Positions 50,972 to 64,000 of a stretch of 64,000 nucleotides of DNA are shown here, in pieces; within the stretch, counting starts at the first letter, position 1, and every line of letters begins with the position of its first letter. The notes beneath the pieces were generated by a model. The model was not told the origin of the DNA. It saw only the letters and a program-made list of their open reading frames with translations, and did not search any database. This DNA is from an uncultured Prevotellaceae bacterium (GTDB taxonomy: Bacteria > Bacteroidota > Bacteroidia > Bacteroidales > Bacteroidaceae), in assembly GCA_902776195.1 (NCBI GenBank), contig CACYPF010000005.1:42933-106932 (forward strand). Direction: 5' to 3'. The translations under genes were made by a program, and so were the position numbers.

Positions 50972-51193
50972 TTATGCGACGTTTTTAGTCAATAATCGTC
51001 GGAAGCCTTCTTCTGAAGACCAAAAAGGGACCTGCCCAAACGGACAGGTCCCTTTATTAAATATGTCAGAGTTATTTTACTCCTCTACTGCTGCCTGCGC
51101 GGCGGCTAACAGATGCTGATTATCAGCGAGTTACAGAGTTTTTAAACTACTGGCGACTCTTTTGCGACACATTCTGCACGTCCTCACGCTTTC
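50972..51193 (-). repeat. Paralogous block A (gene end plus terminator)
   Basis: About 220 bp that shares with block B (53168-53390, same orientation) an almost identical core: 51022-51106 versus 53210-53293, plus weaker similarity on both sides (TGCGACGTTTT left, GAAAGCG right). On the minus strand the core reads as a peptide ending AAAQAAVEE-stop (stop 51077-51079), then a terminator hairpin (51027-51053). Upstream of that the frame has stop codons, so here the coding part is dead. It may be a remnant of an element or dispersed repeat. Confidence 0.65.
51022..51056 (-). terminator. Terminator in block A
   Basis: GGGACCTG/CAGGTCCC stem (51027-51034 with 51046-51053) with AAAAA and TTT flanks, so it can act on either strand; on the minus strand the run of T follows the stem. 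It would stop the transcript of the cassette genes. Confidence 0.75.
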
Positions 51194-51922: not shown

Positions 51923-52948
51923 CTATCGCTTACATTTGGTTTTAAGCATATCATCAATCTTGTTTTTGATTTGATCTTTCTTATAATCTTCCAAATCTAT
52001 TATGGGAATGCGTGCACATTTCGCTAATACTTTAAGATAATTCTCATAGATTGTCCATGTTAGACAATTCAATGCACCACCATTCTCTGCTATAAAATCT
52101 CGCATCTGCACTTGATAGATATTGTCTTCATACTCGGGGTATAGTTGCTTGTATTGGGCCAATGTTTCCGCGTCTGTGACTTCATCTCCAAGTCCTGGAA
52201 TGATAATGAAATCGCATGTTTGTAAACTGTTGATATATGCCCAACTCAAGTCATCATATTTGCTTAGTTCGAGTTCTATGACTTCAAAATGCTTTGCCAG
52301 TGATGAATACATCTCTTGAGCTATCTTGTCATCGTACAGTTGCAGATTTACCAATACTTGAGGCTTGCCAGATTTACTTATACCAACATACCTAACTATT
52401 CCATCCGTGTGACCAAAGATATCTTCTTTATCCCATGGAAGCCAAACGATTGTCAAGTCTGGTGACTGGAAAGCACATTTAAGAAGACACTCTATTTGCT
52501 CTTTGCTGAAAGATGGATTTTCGTTGAAAACTTTTTCAGTCATGACTACGTATTCCGTTTCTTTGCCTTTTTTCTTTCCTTTACAGAATACCATATTACC
52601 TCCGTCAACGACGAACGGAATATCCACAATTTCGTAATTATGTGCAAATGGGCAGTTTTTTATGACTTTATCAACATTTGTAATGTACTTCTTCTTGTCT
52701 TGAAGATAATCTGGATTATAAATGAACTTAACGAAAACATACTCATCCATTTGTATTGGCATAAAATCTCTTACCCAATAGTCTTTCGTGTGAGAAACAG
52801 TTCCCATACCTTTGTGATATGTCCCAATAATGTCCCAAAGTTCTAATTTCAGTTCGGGGTAGTGTCTTTCCAACAGGCTTGACAAGACGACCTTACTTTT
52901 TTCTTTTTCTGTTATTATCATATCGCAATTCTTTTTAATGTTAAACAT
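51923..52948 (-). CDS. Agmatine deiminase / peptidylarginine deiminase family protein
   Basis: A 341-aa PAD_porph-family enzyme of the guanidine-modifying superfamily. WVRDFMP (58-64), DGGN (115-118), GHTDG (179-183) and the nucleophile in GGALNC (Cys295) are the expected catalytic residues. Family members release ammonia from agmatine or peptide arginine; the substrate here is not known. ATG 52948 is used because the promoter (52974-53006) lies inside the longer ORF. AT-rich, in the cassette between the two repeat blocks. Confidence 0.82.
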   Translation of the reverse strand: MFNIKKNCDMIITEKEKSKVVLSSLLERHYPELKLELWDIIGTYHKGMGTVSHTKDYWVRDFMPIQMDEYVFVKFIYNPDYLQDKKKYITNVDKVIKNCPFAHNYEIVDIPFVVDGGNMVFCKGKKKGKETEYVVMTEKVFNENPSFSKEQIECLLKCAFQSPDLTIVWLPWDKEDIFGHTDGIVRYVGISKSGKPQVLVNLQLYDDKIAQEMYSSLAKHFEVIELELSKYDDLSWAYINSLQTCDFIIIPGLGDEVTDAETLAQYKQLYPEYEDNIYQVQMRDFIAENGGALNCLTWTIYENYLKVLAKCARIPIIDLEDYKKDQIKNKIDDMLKTKCKR

Positions 52949-52973
52949 GATGATTCGTCGACTAATCACGGCG

Positions 52974-53006
52974 CAAAGATACAACATATTTAATACTTGG
53001 ACCAAA
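52974..53006 (-). promoter_or_regulatory. Deiminase gene promoter
   Basis: On the minus strand TTTG (53006-53003), 21 bp, TATCTTTG (52981-52974). Confidence 0.7.
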
Positions 53007-53167: not shown

Positions 53168-53390
53168 TTTGCGACGTTTTACCACCAAAATCGTCTGGAG
53201 ATAAAACATAAAAAGGGACCTGCCCAAACGGACAGGTCCCTTTCATTATATCAGAGAGTTTATTTACTCCTCTACTGCTGCCTGCGCGGCGGCGATGTAT
53301 TCGAGGAAATAAAGGGTATTTGTGAGTTTACTCTTAACAATTTCGCAACATTTCAAAGCATTTTTATGGCGAACGCTTTCAAGCCATTTT
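53168..53390 (-). repeat. Paralogous block B (gene end plus terminator)
   Basis: Second copy of the block described at 50972-51193; its core (53210-53293) differs from block A by only a few bases and small gaps. The frame ending AAAQAAVEE (stop 53264-53266) is open for 56 codons back to a stop at 53435-53437, and reads INPRKWLESVRHKN upstream, a style seen in transposase C-termini; not a firm match. Confidence 0.65.
53210..53243 (-). terminator. Terminator in block B
   Basis: Same stem as in block A (GGGACCTG with CAGGTCCC, arms starting 53215 and 53233). Confidence 0.75.
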
Positions 53391-53512
53391 CTCGGGTTTA
53401 TATGAGTTATGAGGTATTCATAAGCGTAATTTCTTTATGTTGTCAGTTTCTCGTAGTAGGATGGAATATAATCCATCTTCCACCGCTTGGGATATTTATC
53501 TTTGTTCTCCAT
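53267..53512 (-). pseudogene. Possible broken small gene ending in block B
   Basis: From ATG 53512 a 25-aa ORF (MENKDKYPKRWKMDYIPSYY at its start) ends at 53435, then the same frame continues 56 codons to the AAAQAAVEE stop. If the internal TAA is a mutation, the ancestor was about 82 aa. It starts 12 bp after the secreted-protein gene on the same strand. Product unrecognised. Confidence 0.3.
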
Positions 53513-53523
53513 CACACCTATTA

Positions 53524-54192
53524 TTATTTAAAGAGTGCATCTATTGTATTACTCCCCATATTCTTTCTGATCTTGTCTGGAGCGATTAGTTCAACAAAGT
53601 TGGCGAATTGTTCCGTATTACTAAAGAAGGATACCACTTCTGTACTTGCTTTTGTCTTCCGACGGAAATTCTGATTGAAGTAGTTAAAATGCGAAACCAT
53701 GTGTATCTGCAAGCATGGTGTGTTACTTTGACTAAACTTAGTAAAGGCAAACTTGTTCTTATTAACAGGCATCAGTTCAAACTGAGGCTTGTCAATGTTC
53801 CATATCGATATGCCCGCAATGGGTAATTCGATAGGGATTTCTTTCTCGAATTGTCCTGTTAGGTTGTTTTCGGCAACTGTCGTCCATTCCTTGTACTTTT
53901 CTTCTATCCTCTTTAAAGTAGAATAGAGGGAGTCGCTATACTGGAGATAGAAAACCGGTCCGTCGCATTTTAGCCCTAACGTTCTGATTTCAGAATTAGT
54001 TGGGGTTACACCTATTAGATATATATTGGAAGAATCTTTGGATGTTATTGCAAAGACTCTCTTCACCTTATCCAAGGTGTTGTATGGGCCAATATCTACC
54101 TTTATACAATCCATATAGGTGTTTCCATTGCTTTGGCTAAAGCAACCGATTGAACAAATCATGAGCAGTAATATAGAAATTATTTTTCTCAT
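53524..54192 (-). CDS. Secreted protein of unknown function
   Basis: A 222-aa protein with a signal peptide (MRKIISILLLMICSIGCFS; the cysteine at 17 could make it a lipoprotein, though the box is weak). The mature part is mixed alpha/beta without a recognised domain. AT-rich accessory gene between block B and the mobile element's regulator. Confidence 0.6.
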   Translation of the reverse strand: MRKIISILLLMICSIGCFSQSNGNTYMDCIKVDIGPYNTLDKVKRVFAITSKDSSNIYLIGVTPTNSEIRTLGLKCDGPVFYLQYSDSLYSTLKRIEEKYKEWTTVAENNLTGQFEKEIPIELPIAGISIWNIDKPQFELMPVNKNKFAFTKFSQSNTPCLQIHMVSHFNYFNQNFRRKTKASTEVVSFFSNTEQFANFVELIAPDKIRKNMGSNTIDALFK

Positions 54193-54223
54193 AATTATTA
54201 ACGTGTAAAATTATGATGGTATA

Positions 54224-54637
54224 TTATACAACCGTTCTCTCTTTTTCAATATTAGTATGTTGTCTGAGCTGGTTAGAAAGATTTGTTACTTCCTTTTCCA
54301 GCTCAATAATCTTTTGTGTCAGTTCTTTGTTTTCATCCCTTGCTTCTCTATATAGTGAAACTGGAACTGTTCCATTTTCAACGTTTTCTGCATTTATTTT
54401 TTCACTTCTGCTTTTTTGTTTTAAGTCAGGACAAAATTCCTCAAAAAAGTTATAGTCAAGTTGAATGCTGATAAGTTTCAATTTCTCAGTGTCCATACTT
54501 GATTTCTTCAACATAGCATTAACGCTTGGTTGTTCCATACCAAGCATTTTTGCAAACTCTGCCTGAGTTATTTTCAAGGTTCTCAACCTTTCTTTTATTG
54601 TTTCGCCGACATGAATCAGCCCAATGTTTATAGACAT
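54224..54637 (-). CDS. XRE-family regulator with coiled-coil tail
   Basis: A 137-aa protein: an N-terminal Cro/C1-type helix-turn-helix (about 11-62, ITQAEFAKMLGMEQPSVNAML) and a C-terminal coiled coil (about 100-130, ENKELTQKIIELEKEVTNL) likely for dimerisation. It faces the operon starting at 54725 and is the natural candidate to control it, perhaps through TATAGA-N6-TCTATA at 54671-54688. Repressor or activator cannot be told. Confidence 0.8.
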   Translation of the reverse strand: MSINIGLIHVGETIKERLRTLKITQAEFAKMLGMEQPSVNAMLKKSSMDTEKLKLISIQLDYNFFEEFCPDLKQKSRSEKINAENVENGTVPVSLYREARDENKELTQKIIELEKEVTNLSNQLRQHTNIEKERTVV

Positions 54638-54670
54638 AACCGTATAAATATAGTTAATAAATACTAAAAT

Positions 54671-54688
54671 TATAGACGTTTATCTATA
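54671..54688. promoter_or_regulatory. Candidate operator of the XRE regulator
   Basis: TATAGA (54671-54676), 6 bp, TCTATA (54683-54688), a perfect inverted repeat just upstream of the -7 element at 54706 and in place of a clear -33 TTTG. The position would suit either activation or repression. Confidence 0.45.
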
Positions 54689-54705
54689 TTTTATAATTAA
54701 ATGAC

Positions 54706-54713
54706 TATCTTTG
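54706..54713 (+). promoter_or_regulatory. -7 element of the mobile-element operon
   Basis: TATCTTTG, 11 bp before the 24-codon leader ORF. No TTTG at the expected -33 distance, which suggests regulated activity. Confidence 0.55.
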
Positions 54714-54724
54714 CACCAGATTTC

Positions 54725-54799
54725 ATGCAACCATCTATGCAACTTATGGTGCAACTACGGATGCAACTTCAGATGCAACTTCGGTGCAAAATTAAATAA
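54725..54799 (+). CDS. 24-aa leader ORF built from 12-bp repeats
   Basis: ATG 54725 to TAA 54797-54799. Five 12-bp units beginning TGCAAC (from 54726) give a four-residue periodic peptide: MQPS, MQLM, VQLR, MQLQ, MQLR, then CKIK. It lies in the leader of the element's operon, 23 bp before the first conventional gene. It may be a translated regulatory peptide, a repeat array for a DNA- or RNA-binding protein, or both. Confidence 0.5.
   Translation: MQPSMQLMVQLRMQLQMQLRCKIK
54726..54786. repeat. Five 12-bp iteron-like repeats
   Basis: TGCAAC-N6 at 54726, 54738, 54750, 54762 and 54774 (last unit 11 bp), followed by a partial TGCAAA. Regular 12-bp spacing puts the cores a little over one helical turn apart. 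Confidence 0.85.
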
Positions 54800-54822
54800 A
54801 ATAAAGCGAAATACAAAATAAT

Positions 54823-55119
54823 ATGGTAAAAAACAACCTATTTGAAACCGATTATGAGCGTTTTCTTCGTGAGAGAGCGGAAAACATTCAGAATGAGTAT
54901 CTGAATTGTGCCCATGAAATCCTCACTGGTCAGATAACTCCTAATCGTGTGATACAACACCTCTCCAAGAGGTTCAATCTTTCTGGTGAGGGTATCAAAA
55001 AAATCCTGAAGCGCAATGGTATCTATTTGAGCGCCAAGCAGCCAGTGATACGCCCACAGTATGAGCCGAAACAGCTATCGATGTTCGGAGCGGAGCAGGC
55101 GAATTTGGCAAGGGTATAA
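54823..55119 (+). CDS. Small helical protein, possible DNA-binding
   Basis: A 98-aa protein with a helix-turn-helix-like centre (VIQHLSKRFNLSGEGIKKILKR, here residues ~44-65) and a QLSMFGAEQ tail. First conventional gene of the element's operon. I recognise no family; DNA binding is inference. Confidence 0.6.
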   Translation: MVKNNLFETDYERFLRERAENIQNEYLNCAHEILTGQITPNRVIQHLSKRFNLSGEGIKKILKRNGIYLSAKQPVIRPQYEPKQLSMFGAEQANLARV

Positions 55120-55162
55120 CAATCATTCTTTATGTCGTAAATATTTTCTAATTTCAGCTATT

Positions 55163-55381
55163 ATGGAAAAGTATATGATTTATTTGGAACCTACAGAGAA
55201 GGACGGCAAGAGCCGGAGTTTCATTCATTCCTGCCGTGACTCTGATGCTGCCAAGGATTACGCCAAGTTTCTGTTAGGCGTTGGCAGCGGTAATTTCCAT
55301 CGTGCTATCGTGCAGAAGCAGTATGGCGACAACTCCTTCCAAGAGGAGATCGACCCTGTTGTGTTCTCCAAGAATCTGTAG
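55163..55381 (+). CDS. Small protein of unknown function
   Basis: A 72-aa protein beginning MEKYMIYLEPTEKDGKSRSF. The ATG at 55163 is preferred over an in-frame upstream start that overlaps the previous gene. No domain recognised. Confidence 0.6.
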   Translation: MEKYMIYLEPTEKDGKSRSFIHSCRDSDAAKDYAKFLLGVGSGNFHRAIVQKQYGDNSFQEEIDPVVFSKNL

Positions 55382-55387
55382 TAGGTT

Positions 55388-55663
55388 ATGATACAGCTGA
55401 CGTTCCCTGACAAGTGCGTTACCTATAGCACATTCATCAACGACCTTGCGACGGCACTGGTGCCAAAGCTGATGGAGGCGATGGAGAATCCGAGTGACCT
55501 CATTTCCCAGAACAAGGCTTTCAAGGTCTTTGGACAGGGGAACATCCGTCGGTGGCGTGAAAAGGGTCTCTTGGAGCCTGTCAGCAAGCGTCCGGGGAAG
55601 ATAGAATACCGTCTGTCAGACCTGCGTATTCTCCAGCAGCGCAAGCAAGACTATTTCGAGTGA
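55388..55663 (+). CDS. MerR/excisionase-like DNA-binding protein
   Basis: A 91-aa protein. AFKVFGQGNIRRWREKGLLEPV followed by GKIEYRLSDLRILQQRK (residues ~44-85) has the winged-helix pattern of excisionases and MerR-like adaptors. In a mobile element it could direct excision or transcription. Family assignment is inference. Confidence 0.6.
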   Translation: MIQLTFPDKCVTYSTFINDLATALVPKLMEAMENPSDLISQNKAFKVFGQGNIRRWREKGLLEPVSKRPGKIEYRLSDLRILQQRKQDYFE

Positions 55664-55710
55664 GCAGATTTGTGTGATACTGCAATATAAAACAAGTAAA
55701 AACCGAAACA

Positions 55711-56076
55711 ATGACTTCTATCATAGTAACGAACTTCTTCGCCAGGGCATCCAACAGTCCGAAGTATGTGCATCCCATCGGTGAGCAGATGCGCAAGGCA
55801 GAGAACTATGCCTTTGAGAGTGAGGAGGAGTTCAACCGTTATCTGGAAGGATTGGAGAAATGGACGAAGGAAATCAATGAGAAGCAGCGCGTCCGTCTAA
55901 CTCTCAATCATACCACTCACGAGAACCACGGTGAGGTGGTTATCTACCGTCAGGGACAGTCTGGCTATGGCGACTTGTTGCGCCTGACATATATCCGTTT
56001 GCAGGGTCACGTCTGTGTCGGCATTGACGGCAGGACGTTACGCCAGTTACCATTCTTAAACGAAGTAGGAGAGTAA
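55711..56076 (+). CDS. Unknown protein
   Basis: A 121-aa protein starting MTSIIVTNFFARASNSPKYV. Mixed alpha/beta, no signal or membrane segment, no domain recognised. The gap to the next gene is 4 bp. Confidence 0.6.
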   Translation: MTSIIVTNFFARASNSPKYVHPIGEQMRKAENYAFESEEEFNRYLEGLEKWTKEINEKQRVRLTLNHTTHENHGEVVIYRQGQSGYGDLLRLTYIRLQGHVCVGIDGRTLRQLPFLNEVGE

Positions 56077-56080
56077 GCCT

Positions 56081-56362
56081 ATGGCGTATAAGGTCATGAA
56101 ACGGGAGTTTGTCCGTCAGCGTCCCAAGTGGCTTGTCCACTTGCTGTTCGCTATCCCTGCCCAGGTCTATGAAGCCTGTGATACACAGGATGAGGTGGAA
56201 GCCCGTTTTCAGGACATCTACAAGGGAATAGAGGAAGTGAAGCTTTTCGAGAGAAACCAGAAGTTGCACCTGAAGGTTCTCGATGACGGCATTTCCATTA
56301 ACAGCAACAAAGACAGACCATACATTAAGTTTACCATCAATAATAACTACTACAAGATCTGA
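56081..56362 (+). CDS. Unknown protein
   Basis: A 93-aa protein, MAYKVMKREFVRQRPKWLVH at its start. Basic N-terminus, then an acidic helix and a beta-rich C-terminus (YIKFTINNNYYKI). No domain recognised. It ends 2 bp before the primase gene. Confidence 0.6.
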   Translation: MAYKVMKREFVRQRPKWLVHLLFAIPAQVYEACDTQDEVEARFQDIYKGIEEVKLFERNQKLHLKVLDDGISINSNKDRPYIKFTINNNYYKI

Positions 56363-56364
56363 TT

Positions 56365-57438
56365 ATGACAGACAGAGACAGAATACTACAAAAGACGAAT
56401 GGAGGTTTTGACGTTTTCGTCCATTACATGGGTGAGGACTGCAAGAAGAAGGTGTTCCGCAACCCCTTCCGTACCGACAACTCCCCCTCATGTCATCTGT
56501 ATTTCCACGAAGACCAGCAGGGCGGCGAGGGTCGCTTTATCCTGAAGGATTTCGGGGATAGCGAGTGGCGTGGTGACTGTTTCTGGCTCGTCGGTCGTCT
56601 ATGCAGCCTTGACGTACGCAATGACTTCATGGAGATCTTGCGTACCATCGACAAGGAGCTGAACCTGTATATCCTTGACGATGCTCCTGCGAATGTTCAT
56701 CCAGTGATGAACAAGGTGCAGAGGGAGCGTATCAGCGACAACCGTCCTGTGAAGTTCACTCCCAAATACAGGAACTTCAACAAGCATGAGCTGAACTATT
56801 GGGCTTCTTATGGCATCAGCTTGTCCATTCTGGAGCGTTTTCATGTCAAGTGTCTGTCCTCTTGTTATTTTGAGCGTGACGATGGTACCAGCTACAATAT
56901 CAACGGTACTATGGATGTACCGATGTTCGGCTACACTTTCTTTGACGGTGCCGGCATCAAGGTCTATCGCCCGAATGCCCAGATAGGCCGTTTCATGTAT
57001 GCCGGTACGCTGCCGAAGCCATACGTTTTCGGATGGGAGCAGCTCTCTTCCCGTCAGAGCTATGTGATTGTCACTGGAGGCGAGAAGGATGTGATGTCCC
57101 TCTCTGTCCACGGCTATGACGCTATCTGCCTGAACAGTGAGACAGCAAAGCTGCCTTTCAATCTGTTGAAGGAGTTGTCAGGTCGCTATGAGCATATCAT
57201 CTTCATCTATGACAGCGACGAGACCGGCAGACGGGAGTCAGCCCTTCGTGTGAAGGAGTGGAACGAGTTTATGAAGGGACAGGGATGTGAGAATCTGCTA
57301 CGTGCCTATAGTGTCACCCTTCCGTTGGCTGGTACCAAGCAGGATAAGGATGCCAGTGATTTCTTTAAGTCAGGTCACTCTGCTACTCTTGTGCGTGACC
57401 TCGTTTTCCGTGCAATTCAAGGTGAATCAAAACTATAA
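56365..57438 (+). CDS. Toprim DNA primase
   Basis: A 357-aa DnaG-like primase of mobile-element type. The N-terminus has the NPFRTDNSPSCHLYFHE pattern that follows the zinc site in DnaG (no CHC2 cysteines are present), and the Toprim core has E240 in GGEKDVMSL and DSDETG (283-288). It makes primers for the element's own replication or transfer. No helicase domain is attached. Centre of the operon. Confidence 0.85.
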   Translation: MTDRDRILQKTNGGFDVFVHYMGEDCKKKVFRNPFRTDNSPSCHLYFHEDQQGGEGRFILKDFGDSEWRGDCFWLVGRLCSLDVRNDFMEILRTIDKELNLYILDDAPANVHPVMNKVQRERISDNRPVKFTPKYRNFNKHELNYWASYGISLSILERFHVKCLSSCYFERDDGTSYNINGTMDVPMFGYTFFDGAGIKVYRPNAQIGRFMYAGTLPKPYVFGWEQLSSRQSYVIVTGGEKDVMSLSVHGYDAICLNSETAKLPFNLLKELSGRYEHIIFIYDSDETGRRESALRVKEWNEFMKGQGCENLLRAYSVTLPLAGTKQDKDASDFFKSGHSATLVRDLVFRAIQGESKL

Positions 57439-57444
57439 ATAGAT

Positions 57445-58476
57445 ATGAATATGTGTCAGACTACACAACGAACATTCCAGCCGAAGGCCAGCAATGTGAA
57501 GCGCGAGGGTTATTGCAGCCCGCATAAACTGAACATCTACTATCCTCCGAAGCCTGATGTCCGTGCGTATATCAAGACTGTGGAAGTGTCTTGTATGAAT
57601 AGGCTTTTTCAGGGTATCGGTTTCCGTAATAACAAAGGTGGTCTGGAGTTCTTCAGTGAGGAATACAGGGAGAAGCACTGTGCCACTGCCAGTGAATATC
57701 TTGACTTGTTACGCAAGGAAAAGCAGCAGTTAGAGGAAGAGTATGAGAATGTCCAGTTAGAGATTTCCCGTGGCAACGGCTCTATAGATGACTGGCAGGA
57801 AAAGTATGAGGAGTTAGAGCGTCAGCTACAGGATGTAAAAGACTCTATGCAGCATTTCATCATTCAGTGTAAGACAGGCCAGATTGCCGAGTCGGAAAAG
57901 CTCCGCATCCGCAAGCAGCTTGGCATTGAGGACAGGAATATCCAGAGACAGTTGGACTGTGTAAAGGCTGAGATAGACGGTTACGAGCGGAACAAGGAAC
58001 GCCTTTCCATGCTCTCCTGCATCCTTCCTGAGTTGCAGATTAAGATCGACAACAAGGAAAAGGAGCTGGCTATTGCCAAGACCTATACTATTGAGCAGCC
58101 TGGACTGCTCACGTTCCCATGGGTGAAGGGCATTGTTGCCAAGCAGGTCAACCTGTTTGCGGATATGTTTGATTATATTGCCTATGTCTTTCTGGCGAAT
58201 AACCCCGATGCAGAGAAGCTTCCTACACTCTGTGACAACATTGTCCTGAATGACCCTCGTAACTTTACGGATATGCTGCTCAATTCTGTCGGCTACGACC
58301 GTATCTATTGCTTTTTCCCTCATACCCTGTCAGGTGAGGTGATAGAGAAAACCATCCTCACCAGTATTGACGCACGGCGTGTTGTCAGCCTGAGCGACTA
58401 CTACGGTGACTATACCACGCTCTATGAGTATGCCAAGACATTTGATGAATTTGTTCCCTTAACAGGTAAGATATGA
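57445..58476 (+). CDS. Coiled-coil protein, possibly with a Toprim-like C-terminus
   Basis: A 343-aa protein. Residues ~85-210 form a long coiled coil (EKQQLEEEYENVQLEI, EKYEELERQLQDVK). The C-terminal ~140 residues (LPTLCDNIVLNDPRNFTDMLLN, FFPHTLSGEVIEKTIL) resemble a Toprim-related fold but lack clear DxD; inference. Adjacent to the primase, so a replication role is plausible. Confidence 0.5.
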   Translation: MNMCQTTQRTFQPKASNVKREGYCSPHKLNIYYPPKPDVRAYIKTVEVSCMNRLFQGIGFRNNKGGLEFFSEEYREKHCATASEYLDLLRKEKQQLEEEYENVQLEISRGNGSIDDWQEKYEELERQLQDVKDSMQHFIIQCKTGQIAESEKLRIRKQLGIEDRNIQRQLDCVKAEIDGYERNKERLSMLSCILPELQIKIDNKEKELAIAKTYTIEQPGLLTFPWVKGIVAKQVNLFADMFDYIAYVFLANNPDAEKLPTLCDNIVLNDPRNFTDMLLNSVGYDRIYCFFPHTLSGEVIEKTILTSIDARRVVSLSDYYGDYTTLYEYAKTFDEFVPLTGKI

Positions 58477-58586
58477 AAAGATGCAGGACATGTGCGGCCC
58501 GTCATCATGACGAAGATGGCTACTACTGTGAATATACGAACGAGCGTCTGCATGAGCAGACCGTGACACCTCCATGTACGAAGTAA
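58473..58586 (+). CDS. 37-aa cysteine-rich micro-protein
   Basis: ATG overlaps the previous stop (ATGA). Sequence runs MKRCRTCAARHHDEDGYYC and then ends PPCTK; four cysteines (C4, C7, C19, C35) and two His could hold a zinc ion. No known family. Confidence 0.55.
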   Translation: MKRCRTCAARHHDEDGYYCEYTNERLHEQTVTPPCTK

Positions 58587-58602
58587 AACAAGTAATAAAT
58601 AT

Positions 58603-59103
58603 ATGCCAAGAGTGAAGAAACAACAGGAGGTGCAGCCAGAGGCTACCACCCCCACGAAGAAAAAGACTGCCGCTAAGAAGTCCGCCGCCGCCAAGGAAAA
58701 GAAGGTGGACGGTCGTACCGTCGAAGGCAAGTTGCAGAAAATGCAGGCCGACTATGAGAAGGTCAGCAAGAAATACGAAGAGCTGTGCAAGCACTATGCT
58801 GAGTTGAAGGTGGAGCAAGAGACCATGCTTTCCACCGTGAAGACCTTGGAGATGCTGCTGGCATCCTTCAATGCCCTCACCCGCAAGGGCGAGGTGAAGA
58901 TGATGAAACCTGAGAAGGGAACATCCTACTGGTACATCCGTGCCATGGCCACGGTAAAGAGCTTTGAGGTTGTCACCTGTTCCTGGAATGACTGGACCAG
59001 TGACCACTACCGCTACGTGAAGGGTAACATGTTCCTTGACCAGAAAACGGCCAATATCGCTTGTCAGGCCCTGAACATGATGCTGTCAAAGTTGAATCAT
59101 TAA
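58603..59103 (+). CDS. Coiled-coil protein with basic N-terminus
   Basis: A 166-aa protein: Lys/Ala-rich N-terminus (about 1-35), coiled coil (about 40-85, KMQADYEKVSKKYEEL) and a folded C-terminus with SYWYIRAMATVKSFEV. The tail resembles nucleoid-associated or phage structural helpers, but no family is recognised. Confidence 0.55.
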   Translation: MPRVKKQQEVQPEATTPTKKKTAAKKSAAAKEKKVDGRTVEGKLQKMQADYEKVSKKYEELCKHYAELKVEQETMLSTVKTLEMLLASFNALTRKGEVKMMKPEKGTSYWYIRAMATVKSFEVVTCSWNDWTSDHYRYVKGNMFLDQKTANIACQALNMMLSKLNH

Positions 59104-59115
59104 AATCGTGGAGCT

Positions 59116-59280
59116 ATGATAATGACTTTTTTTCATACGATCTGTTATTTGTTTTGGTTAGTCATCTTGGCTGCTATTGCTGTCATTGCCGTCAGCATAG
59201 CCAGTGTGGTGGTCAAGGTGATTTTCCTGAATCCCAAGGAGAGTCAGTCCCAGCATAATAACGGTTACAAATCAGAGTAG
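59116..59280 (+). CDS. 54-aa single-pass membrane protein
   Basis: ATG 59116, TAG 59278-59280. One long hydrophobic helix (about 10-40) and a polar tail ending NNGYKSE. It follows the coiled-coil gene by 12 bp and the next gene starts 4 bp later, so it is well placed as a real operon member. Unknown function. Confidence 0.55.
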   Translation: MIMTFFHTICYLFWLVILAAIAVIAVSIASVVVKVIFLNPKESQSQHNNGYKSE

Positions 59281-59284
59281 AGCT

Positions 59285-59896
59285 ATGTATGATGACGTTA
59301 TAAAGTTTTCAAACCGAAACACAGACCTCGAAAAGACCGAGGAGCTGTGGGTGGGTACTGGCTATGATGACCGTCTGGATGATATCATGGACAATATCGT
59401 CAAGACCACCGGCTTTGCCCCCTCGAAGAATATGCAGCCCATCCGTGAGGGTGTGTTCCAGATAATGGACAGCACCACCGTTGATGACCTGAAGGACTTG
59501 GCAGAACGCATCAAGGAGGTCTATCTGATAGACTGCTTCCAGATAGCCATTGACCGTGATCATAACACGGCGCATATGCTCTTTGACTTCAATATCCGTG
59601 ACAAAGGGAAGAGCGTTGTGCTGAACCGCAGTGAGCAGATTGTTCTGAGTGTGATGATACTCCGTTACCTGGATCTTCCTCGTCCTGAGTGTGCCGATGA
59701 ATGGATGGGTTATTTCCTCAAAGGTCGTTTTACGGACGACGAGGATGTCTTTGAGAACTGGCTGAACAATCTGAAGCACAAGAAGCTCAACAAGAATGAT
59801 TTCAACCTTGCCAAGGAAATGAGCATCTTCGTGAAGCAGATGTGTCAGGGCATGGCCGTCTTCGGCATCCGAAAGAAAAATAAGGAGTTTGTCTAA
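59285..59896 (+). CDS. Unknown protein
   Basis: A 203-aa protein starting MYDDVIKFSNRNTDLEKTEE. Helical, acidic; residues ~90-160 include DRDHNTAHMLFDFNIRD and VILRYLDLPRPE. No domain recognised. Confidence 0.6.
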   Translation: MYDDVIKFSNRNTDLEKTEELWVGTGYDDRLDDIMDNIVKTTGFAPSKNMQPIREGVFQIMDSTTVDDLKDLAERIKEVYLIDCFQIAIDRDHNTAHMLFDFNIRDKGKSVVLNRSEQIVLSVMILRYLDLPRPECADEWMGYFLKGRFTDDEDVFENWLNNLKHKKLNKNDFNLAKEMSIFVKQMCQGMAVFGIRKKNKEFV

Positions 59897-59912
59897 GGTG
59901 TAGTGAACTGTT

Positions 59913-60473
59913 ATGGATAAGAGAATCAAGATATACGTGCTAATGCTCTCTGAGTATTTCCCTGTCAGCCATCCGAAGGCGGGTCAGCCTACGGGGTTTG
60001 CTGACGCGCTGAAAGCCAATCTCCAGCGTCTGGAGTGTCACGAGCAGCGTCAGTGTGTGGGCTGTGGAGAGTGCGTACGGCCCTTGAAATACCACACTTT
60101 ACGCAGAAATGCTGAACTGTGGGAGAAAAGAGCTGCTGAGATCAATGCCGGTCATGCCGTCCTTTCTATCCGTCAGTGGAGTGGCAAGCCCTATGGCAAA
60201 GGCACCCACCAGATAGAGATAGTCCGTCTTACCCATCTTGGTACACAGCGTATAACGATGTCCTATCAGTGGCATCAGGTGTTATCAGTCTATTTCCCTA
60301 CTTCGCCGGAAGTGCATACTTCACAACGGGCGAAAGCCGTTGAGCTTTCCAGGTTAGCATCCAATGATGGCTTGTCCGTTGTCGATTTCATGCATTGGTT
60401 TGCATTAAGGAAGAAAAGATGTTCAGAAGATTTTCATGGTGTTATCCTCCACTTTACAGATATGAGATATTGA
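59913..60473 (+). CDS. Possible ASCH-like protein with a zinc pair
   Basis: A 186-aa protein. CVGCGEC (48-54 region) is a cysteine cluster; KYHTLRRNAELWEKRAAEIN then LSIRQWSGKPYGKGTHQIEIVRL follows a pattern seen in mobile elements of the order and recalls ASCH-type RNA-binding folds. Inference only. Confidence 0.5.
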   Translation: MDKRIKIYVLMLSEYFPVSHPKAGQPTGFADALKANLQRLECHEQRQCVGCGECVRPLKYHTLRRNAELWEKRAAEINAGHAVLSIRQWSGKPYGKGTHQIEIVRLTHLGTQRITMSYQWHQVLSVYFPTSPEVHTSQRAKAVELSRLASNDGLSVVDFMHWFALRKKRCSEDFHGVILHFTDMRY

Positions 60474-60504
60474 TTGTTAAACAGAATAAAACAAAACATT
60501 ATTT

Positions 60505-60744
60505 ATGGCAAAAGTAGAACCCACAAAAATTGAGATCAGCCCGGTAAGCTGGGCAGGCGAGATTGTTACGAAGTACCAAGGTTTCGCTATCGTCACCCGT
60601 CCTAACGGGGAAGTCAAGAAGATGTCTGGTGATCCGATGGGAACCAAGGCAGCAGCCCTCTCCAGTCTGAAGCACGAGATGCAGCAGCGCATGGATGATG
60701 TGTCATCCGCTATTGCCTCTCTGAAGGACTATGTGTTAGAGTAA
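60505..60744 (+). CDS. Unknown 79-aa protein
   Basis: Starts MAKVEPTKIEISPVSWAGEI. Beta-rich N-terminus and a helical C-terminus (LKHEMQQRMDDVSSAIASLK). No domain recognised. 33 bp before the SPFH gene. Confidence 0.6.
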   Translation: MAKVEPTKIEISPVSWAGEIVTKYQGFAIVTRPNGEVKKMSGDPMGTKAAALSSLKHEMQQRMDDVSSAIASLKDYVLE

Positions 60745-60777
60745 CCATTTTGTTTCATTTTTAAATTCAAACTAATT

Positions 60778-62241
60778 ATGATGGAATTATTTTCAAGTAA
60801 CGTGTTGTTGATTTGCGCAGCAGTCTGTGTGCTGCTGGCGGTCATTGTGTTTATCTCCTATGTCAAGGCACCGCCTTCGAATGCCTACATCATCTCTGGT
60901 TTGTCCAAGGAGCCTCGTGTGCTCATCGGTTCCGGCGGTTTCCGTATTCCGTTCTTTGAGCGTCTTGATGTGGTGTATCTGGGTCAGATCTCCGTTGACA
61001 TCAAGACTGACGTGAGTGTTCCTACGAAGGATTTCATCAATGTCGATGTGGATGCTATTGCCAAGGTGCGTGTGACCCCTACCAGTGAGGGCACCCGTCT
61101 GGCAGCTAAGAACTTCCTGAATATGACACCTTCACAGATTACAGAGCAGTTGAAGGAGTCCCTGCAAGGTAACATGCGTGAGATTATCGGAACACTGGAG
61201 CTAAAGCCTCTGAATAACGACCGTGACGGCTTTTCAGACCAGGTGATGAAGAAAGCATCCCCGGACATGGCCAAGCTCGGTATTGAGATTATCAGTTGTA
61301 ACATCCAGAATGTCACCGACAAGGAAGGTGCCATCAAGGATTTGGGTGCCGACAACCTTGCCCGTATCAAGAAAGATGCAGCCATCAACCGTGCCACTGC
61401 AGAGCGTGACGTGAAGATTGAGACTGCCAAGGCTGAGAAGGAGGCTAACGATGCCCGTATCGATGCCGATACCGCCATTGCCGTTAAAAAGAATGATCTT
61501 GCCCTGAAGCAAGCTTCTTTGAAGAAACAGGCTGATACCGCCAAAGCTGAAGCTGATGCCGCCTATAAGATTCAGGAACAGGAGCAGCAGAAAACTATCA
61601 ATATTAAGACGGTGGAAGCTGAGATTGAGAAGACGAAGCAGGAGAAAACCCTTACTCAAGAGCAGGTTGAGATCAAAGCAAATCAGCTGAAGGCTGAGAT
61701 TGAGAAGCAGGCTGATGCCGACAAGTATAAGGTAGAGAAGGATGCCCAGGCAAAGCTGGAACAGCAGAAGCGTGAAGCAGAAGCTAAGAAGTATGCCATG
61801 GAGCAGGAGGCCGCAGGTATCCGTGCCAAAGGTGAAGCGGAGGCATACGCCATTGCCCAGAAGGGAGAGGCCGAGGCATTGGCCATGGACAAGAAAGCCG
61901 AAGCCTACAAGAAGTACAACAATGCTGCTGTCATCCAGATGCTCGTCGGTGTATTGCCGGAGGTGGTCAAGAATGTTGCAGAACCTATCAGTTCCATCAA
62001 GGAAGTCAAGGTATTCAGTGGTGGCGGTGCTGAAGGAGGTGTTGCCTCTATCAGCGGCCAGGTTCCCGTTGCCATCCGTCAGGCTTTCGATGTTGTAAAG
62101 GAAGCCACTGGCGTTGACTTGGGAGAGATTATGAAGGCTGGCACCTTCGATGCCAAGACTACCCGTAACATCAACCTTGGCGGCCCCGTCGGTGGTCGTG
62201 CCGGGGAAGTAGTAGATGCTATTGTTGAGAATCCAGAGTAA
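60778..62241 (+). CDS. Flotillin-like SPFH membrane protein
   Basis: A 487-aa protein: one N-terminal membrane helix (about 9-29), an SPFH/band-7 domain (about 30-195; GSGGFRIPFFERLDVVYLG, VDVDAIAKVRV), then a very long alanine/lysine/glutamate coiled coil (about 200-400, with AEREVKIETAKAEKEAN-like heptads) and a C-terminal GGPVGGRAG tail. Flotillins oligomerise into membrane scaffolds. Such a gene in a mobile element's early operon is unusual. A second SPFH-like protein follows at 62304. Confidence 0.85.
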   Translation: MMELFSSNVLLICAAVCVLLAVIVFISYVKAPPSNAYIISGLSKEPRVLIGSGGFRIPFFERLDVVYLGQISVDIKTDVSVPTKDFINVDVDAIAKVRVTPTSEGTRLAAKNFLNMTPSQITEQLKESLQGNMREIIGTLELKPLNNDRDGFSDQVMKKASPDMAKLGIEIISCNIQNVTDKEGAIKDLGADNLARIKKDAAINRATAERDVKIETAKAEKEANDARIDADTAIAVKKNDLALKQASLKKQADTAKAEADAAYKIQEQEQQKTINIKTVEAEIEKTKQEKTLTQEQVEIKANQLKAEIEKQADADKYKVEKDAQAKLEQQKREAEAKKYAMEQEAAGIRAKGEAEAYAIAQKGEAEALAMDKKAEAYKKYNNAAVIQMLVGVLPEVVKNVAEPISSIKEVKVFSGGGAEGGVASISGQVPVAIRQAFDVVKEATGVDLGEIMKAGTFDAKTTRNINLGGPVGGRAGEVVDAIVENPE

Positions 62242-62256
62242 CAACGAACAGGATAA

Positions 62257-62283
62257 GGGGTGCGTCCTAATGGGCGCATACCC
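62257..62283 (+). other. Hairpin between the two SPFH genes
   Basis: GGGT-GCG-TCC and GGG-CGC-AT-ACCC (62258-62267 with 62272-62283) pair around TAAT, with one small bulge and one G-U. No T tract follows, so it is more likely an mRNA-processing or stability hairpin than a terminator. Confidence 0.4.
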
Positions 62284-62303
62284 TTCCTTAAAAAGAACCA
62301 GTT

Positions 62304-62945
62304 ATGAGTAAAGAAATAAACATCTATAATTACAACGAACCGAAGAAACTTTCGCATAGCTATTTGAGTGGTAAGCAGCTCCTTATTATCTGCATAGTAG
62401 TCCTTCTCAGTCCACTGCCACCTTTCTTTGTGTTTAAGCAGTGTTCAGGTGCCAGCGAGGCTCCTGTGGCTAAGACGAAAGAACAGCCCGTAAAGGTTGT
62501 AGAGCGAGTAAAGGAGAGTGTTCAGCCTATTGAGCAGCCTACCACTTTTGTTAATGCTTCTGGAGCAACAGAGACGACAGTCACCATGACAGTCATCACC
62601 AGTCCTTATACTTGGCAATATGAGTTGACGGATGTCACTACCAATGATGACATCAATGTAAGTATCAAGCTCTCTATCACCTCTCAGATTAAGGCTGGCA
62701 TGGAAAAGATGTTGGTTCAGAACTACGGTGGTAACTGGTTCTATGCAGTCTTTGCAACTCCCTTCAGTGATGTTGCCAAGGCAGATATTAAAGGGCATTA
62801 CTCTGGAGTTGACCTTAAAATGAAGATGCGCGGTGTTGAGCAGCAGCTCACCACAATCGCCCAAAAGGTTGTGCAGCAGTTGTCAGAGGCGTCTCTGCTG
62901 CCTGTGGAGATTAAGGAAGTAAGAATTGCTGAAGTAAAATTGTGA
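62304..62945 (+). CDS. Membrane protein with prohibitin-like C-terminal domain
   Basis: A 213-aa protein: one membrane helix (about 25-45, LLIICIVVLLSPLPPFFVF) then a linker and a domain (about 90-213) whose layout, NINVSIKLSITSQIKAGMEKML ... NYGGNWFYAVFATPFSDVAK ... GVDLKMKMRGVEQQL ... LLPVEIKEVRIAEVKL (each shown in part), follows SPFH/prohibitin: pairing strands, DIL-like helix, TPFsDv turn, hydrophobic end. No long coiled coil. Assignment is inference; likely partner of the flotillin upstream. Confidence 0.55.
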   Translation: MSKEINIYNYNEPKKLSHSYLSGKQLLIICIVVLLSPLPPFFVFKQCSGASEAPVAKTKEQPVKVVERVKESVQPIEQPTTFVNASGATETTVTMTVITSPYTWQYELTDVTTNDDINVSIKLSITSQIKAGMEKMLVQNYGGNWFYAVFATPFSDVAKADIKGHYSGVDLKMKMRGVEQQLTTIAQKVVQQLSEASLLPVEIKEVRIAEVKL

Positions 62946-62949
62946 TGCT

Positions 62950-63498
62950 ATGAAACAGACAGATAACAGAAAAGATGTGATTATGCAGGCCGATCAGGAG
63001 AATTTCGATTCAGAGAAAGGCTATGTCATCAACAAGGGAATGCCTGGTTTCGTTTGTGACGTAGAAATCAAAAGGCTCCGCAAGGTCGTGGACGAAAAGA
63101 ATGCTCTCATTGAGAAATACAAGAAGTATGATGAAGAGCGCAAGGCATATTATGCCAACTTCATGGAAGAATACTCAGAGATGAAAGAGTCTTTTACTCA
63201 GTTCACTGATGAATTGGTGAAAGTCGTGGAGGATGGTGAAATGAGCCATTCGGAACATAAGCGTTTCGTGAAGCTCTATGGAAAGTGGCTCACATATAAG
63301 AACCATGCTATGCTGTATAAGAATGCTATCGCAACAGCCAGACATGGTGTGAAAGACTTGGTTCAAGACCTGAAAGTGTTAGAGACATTGGTATTAAATG
63401 CTGGTGATATGACGCTCATAGAGCAGCTTACGGACAGGATCCATGTCATGCATCAGCACTTAGATACCGTCAGGTCACGACTGGTTACAGATGAGTGA
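62950..63498 (+). CDS. Coiled-coil protein
   Basis: A 182-aa soluble protein, mostly helical: EIKRLRKVVDEKNALIEKYKKYDEER and later TLVLNAGDMTLIEQLTDRIHVMHQHL (fragments). Starts 4 bp after the prohibitin-like gene, so probably works with it. No family recognised. Confidence 0.6.
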   Translation: MKQTDNRKDVIMQADQENFDSEKGYVINKGMPGFVCDVEIKRLRKVVDEKNALIEKYKKYDEERKAYYANFMEEYSEMKESFTQFTDELVKVVEDGEMSHSEHKRFVKLYGKWLTYKNHAMLYKNAIATARHGVKDLVQDLKVLETLVLNAGDMTLIEQLTDRIHVMHQHLDTVRSRLVTDE

Positions 63499-63561
63499 TA
63501 TTTTCTTTTTTCATACATTTGAATTAATAATTAAAATTAAGAAGTTAAACATTTTTCTCAT

Positions 63562-63590
63562 GTGGAGACATCTGTGACAGACCTCTCCAC
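63562..63590 (+). other. Double hairpin in a gene gap
   Basis: GTGGAG/CTCCAC (63562-63567 with 63585-63590) enclose TCTG/CAGA (63571-63574 with 63578-63581, loop TGA). It occupies the 116-bp gap before the 49-aa gene. No T tract. Confidence 0.4.
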
Positions 63591-63614
63591 TTCTCTTAAA
63601 AGTTAGTGATTATT

Positions 63615-63764
63615 ATGAACGGTAAGAAGTTTAAGGAATTGGTAGCGAAGATTCCAGATGATGCAGAAGTGGTGCATCTGTGGAAGGGTGGCTTTGCCTG
63701 GCGACAGGGGGGCGGTACGCTCCATGCCTATTCTTTCAAGCCGGACTATATAGAAGATAAATAG
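63615..63764 (+). CDS. 49-aa small protein
   Basis: ATG 63615, TAG 63762-63764. Starts MNGKKFKELVAKIPDDAEVV and ends KPDYIEDK, with WKGGFAWRQGGG in the middle. Compact alpha/beta look; it may be an anti-restriction or regulatory micro-protein, but nothing supports a choice. Confidence 0.55.
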   Translation: MNGKKFKELVAKIPDDAEVVHLWKGGFAWRQGGGTLHAYSFKPDYIEDK

Positions 63765-63808
63765 TTAGTTATAATTATTTTAAAACATGGAAAAATCAAG
63801 TAAAACAT

Positions 63809-64000
63809 ATGAGTAACATAAAACTATTATATATTGACCTGTTTTGTGGTGCCGGTGGCACCTCGACGGGAGTGACGAAGGCACGGCTGTTCGGGAAACA
63901 GTGTGCAAAGGTGGTGGCGTGTGTGAATCACGACGCTAACGCTATTGCGTCCCATCAGGCGAACCATCCCGACACGTTACATTTCACCGAGGACATCAGA
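63809..64000 (+). CDS. C5-cytosine DNA methyltransferase, 5' part
   Basis: The first 64 codons of a Dcm-type methyltransferase, cut by the window edge. IDLFCGAGGTSTGVTKA is motif I (SAM binding) and ACVNHDANAIASHQANHPDT is the motif II/III strand region. The start overlaps a 9-codon ORF (63787-63816). It may protect the element from host restriction or modify its own DNA. Whether a restriction gene follows is outside the window. Confidence 0.9.
   Translation, partial: MSNIKLLYIDLFCGAGGTSTGVTKARLFGKQCAKVVACVNHDANAIASHQANHPDTLHFTEDIR

What the first reader, a model, noticed from the sequence alone, without database searches (positions are those of the whole stretch)
60778..63498. Flotillin and a prohibitin-like partner inside a mobile element
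Seen: an SPFH protein with a long coiled coil, then a single-pass protein with a short SPFH/prohibitin-like domain, then a coiled-coil protein, tightly spaced, between a primase and a DNA methyltransferase. Known: bacterial flotillins build membrane microdomains; they are normally chromosomal. Inference: the element may encode its own membrane scaffold for replication, conjugation, superinfection exclusion or defence.
Basis: partly seen in the sequence, partly recalled or inferred. Interest (0 to 1): 0.72.

Follow-up and report, generated by a model that had tools for sequence, protein, structure and literature searches.

The report
Flotillin pair on a mobile element
A bacterium that is probably a Prevotella carries an integrated mobile element into which a membrane-organising protein (flotillin) and an unusually short relative of it were inserted as extra cargo; flotillins on mobile DNA are already known, but this particular pairing was not found elsewhere in the searches made.

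Summary
At 60778-62241 is a true flotillin (Band_7 7.7e-24 plus Flot domain). The 213-aa protein at 62304-62945 has an SPFH fold: from residue 101 on the model has ten-residue mean pLDDT 88-96, and all 30 PDB matches at E<=0.001 carry titles of SPFH structures or complexes. It stops right after the domain, 89-94 residues short of its 26 relatives. The third gene, however, is an element backbone gene: in a TraG-bearing element of the same genus (G950) its homologue starts 12 bp after the homologue of window gene 59285-59896. Flotillin and short SPFH, with two small genes, are therefore an insertion at that junction. The element is integrative: its left edge (about 53295) lies in the 3' end of ppdK. 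Kin carry Tra genes, but no TraG was found in this genome. Flotillins on mobile DNA are not new: 311 plasmid records hold a match, 255 predicted conjugative. The short SPFH protein has no close relative in the searches made. Most likely: an accessory inner-membrane scaffold with SPFH domains on opposite faces. Function is untested.

The parts
53210..53295 (-). ppdK 3'-end and terminator repeat: left edge of the integrated element (candidate att site)
   Evidence: conserved up to 53293-53295 in G719, G728, G716, G715, G721 and others, diverges beyond; in G716, G728, G715, G721 it is the end of a long ORF (446-735 codons in the stretches read); that of G728 matches PPDK_N and PEP-utilizers_C
51022..51106 (-). 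second copy of the same ppdK-end repeat (about 91% identical), flanking a 2.2-kb islet with a PAD_porph gene
   Evidence: PAD_porph Pfam 6.3e-20
54224..54637 (-). HTH regulator-like gene of the element
   Evidence: HTH_37 and HTH_3 matches, just below cut-off
56365..57438 (+). Toprim-type primase, element backbone
   Evidence: phrog_12622 4.2e-31; about 45% identical to two copies in the TraG-bearing region of G164
59285..59896 (+). backbone gene left of the insertion
   Evidence: 49% identical in G950, 34% in G164
59913..60473 (+). cargo-cassette gene, phrog_8581 family
   Evidence: 7.3e-29 full length; 35% identical in Bacteroides phage Versailles
60505..60744 (+). small cargo-cassette gene, no family above cut-off
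60778..62241 (+). flotillin (SPFH + long helical stretch + Flot domain), cargo
   Evidence: pN/pS 0.21-0.26 in four comparisons
62304..62945 (+). short SPFH protein: one N-terminal hydrophobic stretch, linker, SPFH domain, no C-terminal extension; cargo
   Evidence: 48% identical, same length, next to the 59285-gene homologue in G950
63809..64000 (+). start of a C5 cytosine DNA methyltransferase, cut by the contig end; probably continues on contig C40 of the same genome
   Evidence: exact 99-bp overlap with C40

Best explanation
This is an accessory cassette inserted into the backbone of an integrative element, in a probable Prevotella, whose kin are conjugative. Shown: the insertion between two backbone genes, the flotillin, the SPFH fold of the second protein and its lack of the C-terminal stretch of its relatives. 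Inferred: flotillin anchors by its N-terminal hydrophobic segment and assembles into large rings or cages on the cytoplasmic face of the inner membrane. The short SPFH protein is held N-in by its single segment with its SPFH domain in the periplasm, as HflK/C and prohibitin are (recalled), so that the pair organises one patch of inner membrane from both faces. Its likely use is as a host- or transfer-supporting membrane scaffold in a host in which no chromosomal flotillin was found.
For: Flotillin domains. SPFH fold of the partner. Backbone continuity without the pair in G950. Flotillin kept under constraint: pS 0.65-0.82 against pN 0.17-0.18 in four comparisons. A lineage of its own, outside 32 other flotillins of the genus (clade of 33 at 100/99; the 32 without it only 84/84). 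Periplasmic side of the partner: 23 of 26 relatives match a lipobox pattern (one, L102, lies inside a hydrophobic stretch and I discount it, so 22), and the net charge before the segment is +2. Precedent for the pairing: an SPFH lipoprotein, a protein with a weak NfeD match (0.0061, below cut-off) and a flotillin in a row in 2 of 26 relative loci, L114 and L115; L115 is the same DNA as the G264 locus. The genome has one other Band_7 gene, on contig C3. Precedent on transfer elements: a YqiJ-type OB-fold protein plus flotillin just before pil genes on the IncI1/B/O plasmid pHUSEC41-1.
Against: No expression, interaction or phenotype data. No second locus with the pair. Topology rests on charge and relatives' lipoboxes only; the net charge after the segment is also +2. 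In Agrobacterium the loss of three SPFH proteins did not affect T4SS function or its place in detergent-resistant membranes (PMC8656257, passages read). The genome is 93.55% complete, so a chromosomal flotillin could be missing from it.
Confidence: 0.4

Rival explanations
1. The pair serves conjugation: the flotillin patch recruits the mating apparatus of the element.
For: Backbone relatives in G164 and G950 lie within about 20 kb of TraG-type ATPases (P-loop_TraG 2.3e-116 and 5.2e-118). Flotillin stands at the head of pil genes on pHUSEC41-1, and 255 of 311 flotillin-bearing plasmid records are predicted conjugative. H. pylori lacking HP0248 delivers less CagA by its T4SS (as cited in a passage of PMC8656257).
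Against: No TraG-like gene found in this genome. The cassette is on the replication/regulation side, not among tra genes. The stretches read of G164 (40 kb) and G950 (20 kb) hold no flotillin or short SPFH by tblastn. Agrobacterium T4SS function is independent of its SPFH proteins.
Confidence: 0.2
2. Defence or exclusion cargo: the pair blocks phage or a second element at the membrane.
For: Inserted variable cargo near a DNA methyltransferase; cassette mate 59913-60473 is of a phage family.
Against: No PADLOC match of note for these proteins. A search for SPFH, anti-phage, defense and flotillin (at least 3 of 4) listed 12 of 55 papers; no title or abstract start names an SPFH defence system, and none of the 12 was opened. 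Related flotillins in G233, G164, G178 and G246 stand alone among ordinary chromosomal genes.
Confidence: 0.12
3. The short SPFH protein is a cap, competitor or dominant-negative of host SPFH rings, because it has the domain but not the C-terminal helical stretch that helps such rings to close (recalled).
For: Clean end after the last strand of the domain (E201-212 of 213); relatives go on for 89-94 residues.
Against: No close chromosomal target in this genome: in G000 only its own gene matched, and only one other Band_7 gene exists apart from the flotillin.
Confidence: 0.13
4. The short SPFH protein is a remnant whose 3' part was cut off when the cassette was inserted just before the next backbone gene.
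For: Its stop lies 4 bp before the backbone gene, that is, at the inferred edge of the insertion. No close relative exists to test selection.
Against: The fold is complete and the cut falls at the domain edge; the frame is open.
Confidence: 0.15

Closest known systems
Flotillins of other genomes of the same genus (60 of 295 others, counted from the rows)
   Same: 70-76% identical, similar length (492-533 aa) and domains
   Different: In the four neighbourhoods read (G233, G164, G178, G246) they stand alone in ordinary and mutually different surroundings, with no short SPFH beside them
Bacteroidales SPFH lipoproteins / membrane proteins of 274-312 aa (e.g. Prevotella denticola, P. multiformis, P. 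jejuni, Segatella maculosa)
   Same: 20-28% identity, invariant N114-D115 and Y141-G142-W145 positions, Band_7 in the three tested
   Different: All 26 go on for 89-94 residues where the window protein stops
HflK/HflC and prohibitins (PHB1/2)
   Same: SPFH fold, N-terminal anchor, presumed non-cytoplasmic domain; prohibitin complex 9o9z is the best PDB match
   Different: No coiled coil or helical C-terminus; the neighbour is a flotillin, not a paralogue
OB-fold/NfeD-flotillin gene pairs on plasmids (pHUSEC41-1, E. faecium pK21EFM001_1_3)
   Same: Flotillin with a small partner on mobile DNA
   Different: Partner there is a YqiJ-type or NfeD protein, not SPFH; flotillin only 23-32% identical
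Flotillins of phage csAssE-Sib and of IMG/VR contigs L004-L008
   Same: Flotillin on viral DNA, 26-56% identical
   Different: No other window gene beside them by tblastn

Membership tests
Flotillin family | SPFH (Band_7) domain plus C-terminal Flot domain | tested here: met
   60778-62241: Band_7 85.1 bits (cut-off 23.6), Flot 33.6 bits (cut-off 27)
FloT equivalog (NCBIfam) | FlotScfldFlot cut-off 700 bits | tested here: not met
   266.6 bits: a flotillin, not filed as FloT itself
SPFH superfamily (213-aa protein) | SPFH fold | tested here: met
   AF2 model and Foldseek PDB matches; Pfam alone below cut-off (14.7 against 23.6 bits)
Prohibitin / HflK-HflC | SPFH domain followed by a coiled coil (recalled) | tested here: not met
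   protein ends at residue 213, last strand 201-212; hence 'SPFH protein', not 'prohibitin'
Prohibitin / HflK-HflC | ring-forming pair of two SPFH paralogues, or FtsH binding (recalled) | not testable with these tools
   single-chain prediction only
Integrative element | site-specific junction with a host gene end | tested here: met
   ppdK 3' end, left edge only; integrase and right edge not in hand
Integrative conjugative element | own transfer genes | tested here: inconclusive
   backbone kin have TraG; none found in this genome of 93.55% completeness
Co-evolved trio module | the three genes recur together | tested here: not met
   third gene occurs without the other two in the G950 stretch; short SPFH not found elsewhere

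The most novel reading that the evidence does not exclude
A mobile element encodes a two-faced membrane scaffold: a flotillin cage on the cytoplasmic side and a coiled-coil-free SPFH mini-ring on the periplasmic side, stacked through the membrane and used by the element to build its own membrane territory.
Probability: 0.12. Interest if true: 0.75.

Novelty: new variant of a known kind. Interest (0 to 1): 0.42.

Why it matters
Why flotillins ride on plasmids, phages and integrative elements is open. Here a minimal pair (one full flotillin, one SPFH domain without its usual C-terminal stretch) sits as a clean insertion, with a pair-free relative for comparison. That makes the question testable by gene removal: what changes in membrane, maintenance or transfer when the pair is absent. 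It also offers a natural SPFH protein that separates the domain from the coiled coil.

Tried and rejected
Trio as a module: rejected, since the third gene is backbone. Phage origin of the element: considered because primase and 59913-60473 match phage families; but the best primase kin in genomes are 46-47% identical (most rows 37-44%) against 23-29% in the 25 phage rows listed of 82, and the G164 and G950 regions carry TraG. It is disfavoured, not excluded. MT836322 (L126), filed as a phage, has LGT, tRNA_edit and GreA genes beside the flotillin, so I do not count it as a phage flotillin. Third protein as PspA-like (after the B. subtilis YdjI work, PMC8581546, abstract and outline seen): the low-confidence model does not allow a test. 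Weak Pfam matches of the third protein (EcoR124_C 0.00059 and others) are below cut-off and taken as helix bias. Close relatives of the short SPFH: none in viral contigs, phage records, plasmid records, genome contigs with the single protein, or 392 other order genomes at E<=0.001; the family search gave 19 of 300 other genomes, all in longer open frames (272-369 aa) at 23-30% identity. Among viral models one phage HflK-named protein of 173 aa matched at E 4.6e-3 (not followed), so a short SPFH may exist in phages. The third protein gave 3 weak matches among 300 other family genomes, two of them with a stop inside, yet G950 shows a real one: that sample missed it. In one search only the best two candidate places per genome were scored, so its negatives are weak. 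Papers: no report of this pair was found in the searches (open-licence PMC only; listings seen).

Full report
Setting. The window is G000:C5:42933-106932 and its last base is the contig's end. Contig C40 (6,228 bp) overlaps the window's end by exactly 99 bases and carries the rest of the C5 methyltransferase (DNA_methylase 1.3e-27), an HTH/sigma-r4/RpoA-CTD protein and a Lin1244-type protein. The overlap suggests adjacency; it does not prove it.

The element is integrative. Contig C30 of G719 matches the window in pieces between 47338 and 53293 (three of 97-98% and a short one of 81%) and not beyond; in other genomes an 86-base stretch also stops at 53293-53295. In G716, G728, G715 and G721 that stretch is the end of a long ORF; that of G728 (735 codons in the stretch read) matches PPDK_N 1.3e-48 and PEP-utilizers_C 4.3e-82, that is pyruvate phosphate dikinase, ppdK, and the PAD-type gene found in the window follows it directly. 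The window keeps only the last codons (shared end AAAQAAVEE), so its left edge lies in the 3' end of ppdK. A second, about 91% identical copy at 51022-51106 flanks a 2.2-kb islet, and G719 has other DNA at the same edge, as if several insertions had used the same site. No integrase showed among the genes of 53296-64000 that were scanned with Pfam.

Kin of the element. The primase at 56365 is about 45% identical to two copies in G164. The 40-kb stretch read there also holds a ParA-like ATPase (AAA_31 3.9e-54), the C5 methyltransferase (87.5% identical over the 64 residues in the window, 69.6% over the C40 part) and genes that look Tra-like, one of them P-loop_TraG. G950 has a P-loop_TraG protein 66.5% identical to that of G164 and homologues of 56081-56362 (36%), 57445-58476 (about 40%, in two pieces), 59285-59896 (49%) and the third gene (48%) in the same order. 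G886 has a 98.9% identical copy of 55388-55663 in a stretch with a Mob_Pre protein and genes that look Tra-like by eye. In the window's own genome no TraG was found with either a protein or a family query, so this copy may be partial, non-autonomous or incompletely assembled.

The trio comes apart. In G950 the homologue of the third gene (182 aa) starts 12 bp after the stop of the homologue of 59285-59896. In the window the same two genes are 3,053 bp apart, with 59913-60473, 60505-60744, flotillin and short SPFH between them. These four are therefore the insertion, and the helical third gene is backbone. The reverse, a loss in G950, is possible, but no other locus with the pair was found. In G164 other genes follow the 59285 homologue, so it is a variable place.

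Flotillin. Domains are clear. A DNA search of 295 other genus genomes found a flotillin match in 60 of them, counted from the rows. In the four neighbourhoods read (G233, G164, G178, G246) it is a lone gene among ordinary chromosomal genes that differ from genome to genome: of the G233 neighbours only the flotillin itself matched the other three stretches. In a tree of 39 proteins the window copy falls outside the 32 others of the genus (clade of 33 at 100/99; the 32 without it 84/84), on a long branch of 0.82 that the program flags as unsure; an earlier tree of 25 put it beside the four (100/100). Recent capture from a sampled chromosome is thus not supported. pN 0.17-0.18 against pS 0.65-0.82 shows constraint, with synonymous sites near saturation. 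The genome has just one other Band_7 gene, on C3.

Short SPFH. The model was made from 22 aligned sequences: mean pLDDT 70.4 and pTM 0.54 overall, 88-96 per ten-residue block from residue 101 on, and below 50 in most of 37-98. Foldseek gives 30 PDB chains at E<=0.001, all with titles of prohibitin, erlin, stomatin, flotillin or SPFH/HflK-type structures (one, 9zd2, is aquaporin with bound stomatin). TM-scores normalised by the whole query are 0.35-0.46, because about half the chain is anchor and linker; by the length of isolated stomatin domains they reach 0.71. Among viral models 12 match at E<=0.001, the named ones SPFH/Band 7 proteins of phages and giant viruses of 258-507 aa. Of 26 relatives from named contigs (274-312 aa), 23 match a lipobox pattern, 22 of them convincingly, and two lie in a row with an NfeD-like gene and a flotillin. 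That family is thus probably exposed beyond the inner membrane, whereas flotillin is taken to face the cytoplasm (recalled knowledge). This is the base of the two-faced reading; it is inference.

Mobile flotillins elsewhere. tblastn found 311 plasmid records (226 Escherichia; 255 predicted conjugative), all below 60% identity, and 11 phage-collection records, one of which looks bacterial. On pHUSEC41-1 (IncI1/B/O, MPF_I) a YqiJ-type OB-fold protein and a flotillin stand just before pilI. On an E. faecium plasmid an NfeD-flotillin pair occurs. Phage csAssE-Sib has an annotated flotillin. So surprise at a mobile flotillin is moderate; the short SPFH partner is the unusual part.

Regulation. A strict Bacteroidetes-type promoter pattern was found once in 53296-64000, on the minus strand at 54817; -7-like motifs in 58001-63900 of the plus strand lie only at 58164 and 63514 (pattern recalled). 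This fits one long transcript but is weak evidence.

Papers. Passages read: PMC8656257 (Agrobacterium T4SS lies in detergent-resistant membranes independently of SPFH proteins), PMC13086221 (P. aeruginosa SPFH genes probably gained by horizontal transfer), PMC11879866 and PMC7824781 (nothing relevant). PMC8581546: abstract and outline. Others: search listings only.

Verdict. Real flotillin and real, oddly short SPFH protein as cargo of an integrative element; trio refuted; function inferred.

Noticed in passing
window 51022-51106 and 53210-53295: Two near-identical ppdK-3'-end/terminator repeats flank a 2.2-kb islet with a PAD-type peptidyl-arginine deiminase gene (51923-53005) and a 216-aa gene: the ppdK end looks like a hot spot where several insertions stack.
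   Followed up: partly
window 63809-64000 and contig C40 (L098): C5 DNA methyltransferase shared with the G164 element (87.5% over the window part, 69.6% over the C40 part), with matches to the region of its start in nine other genus genomes: a common part of such elements.
   Followed up: partly
L183 (NC_018995.1, 82569-91942): IncI1/B/O conjugative plasmid with a YqiJ-type OB-fold protein and a flotillin right before the pil genes; 255 of 311 flotillin-bearing plasmid records are predicted conjugative.
   Followed up: partly
L004 6774-12043 and L125 4546-10945: Two gut virus contigs share an ATPase-like, flotillin, 677-aa, 122-aa gene order around the flotillin; in L125 the ATPase-like ORF is split by another ORF (seen by eye).
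   Followed up: no
L126 (MT836322.1): Record filed as a bacteriophage whose genes beside the flotillin are LGT, an aminoacyl-tRNA editing domain and GreA, so it looks bacterial.
   Followed up: partly
L086 14345-15370 and L087 3287-4309 (G164): Two primase copies about 8 kb apart in opposite orientation in one region.
   Followed up: no
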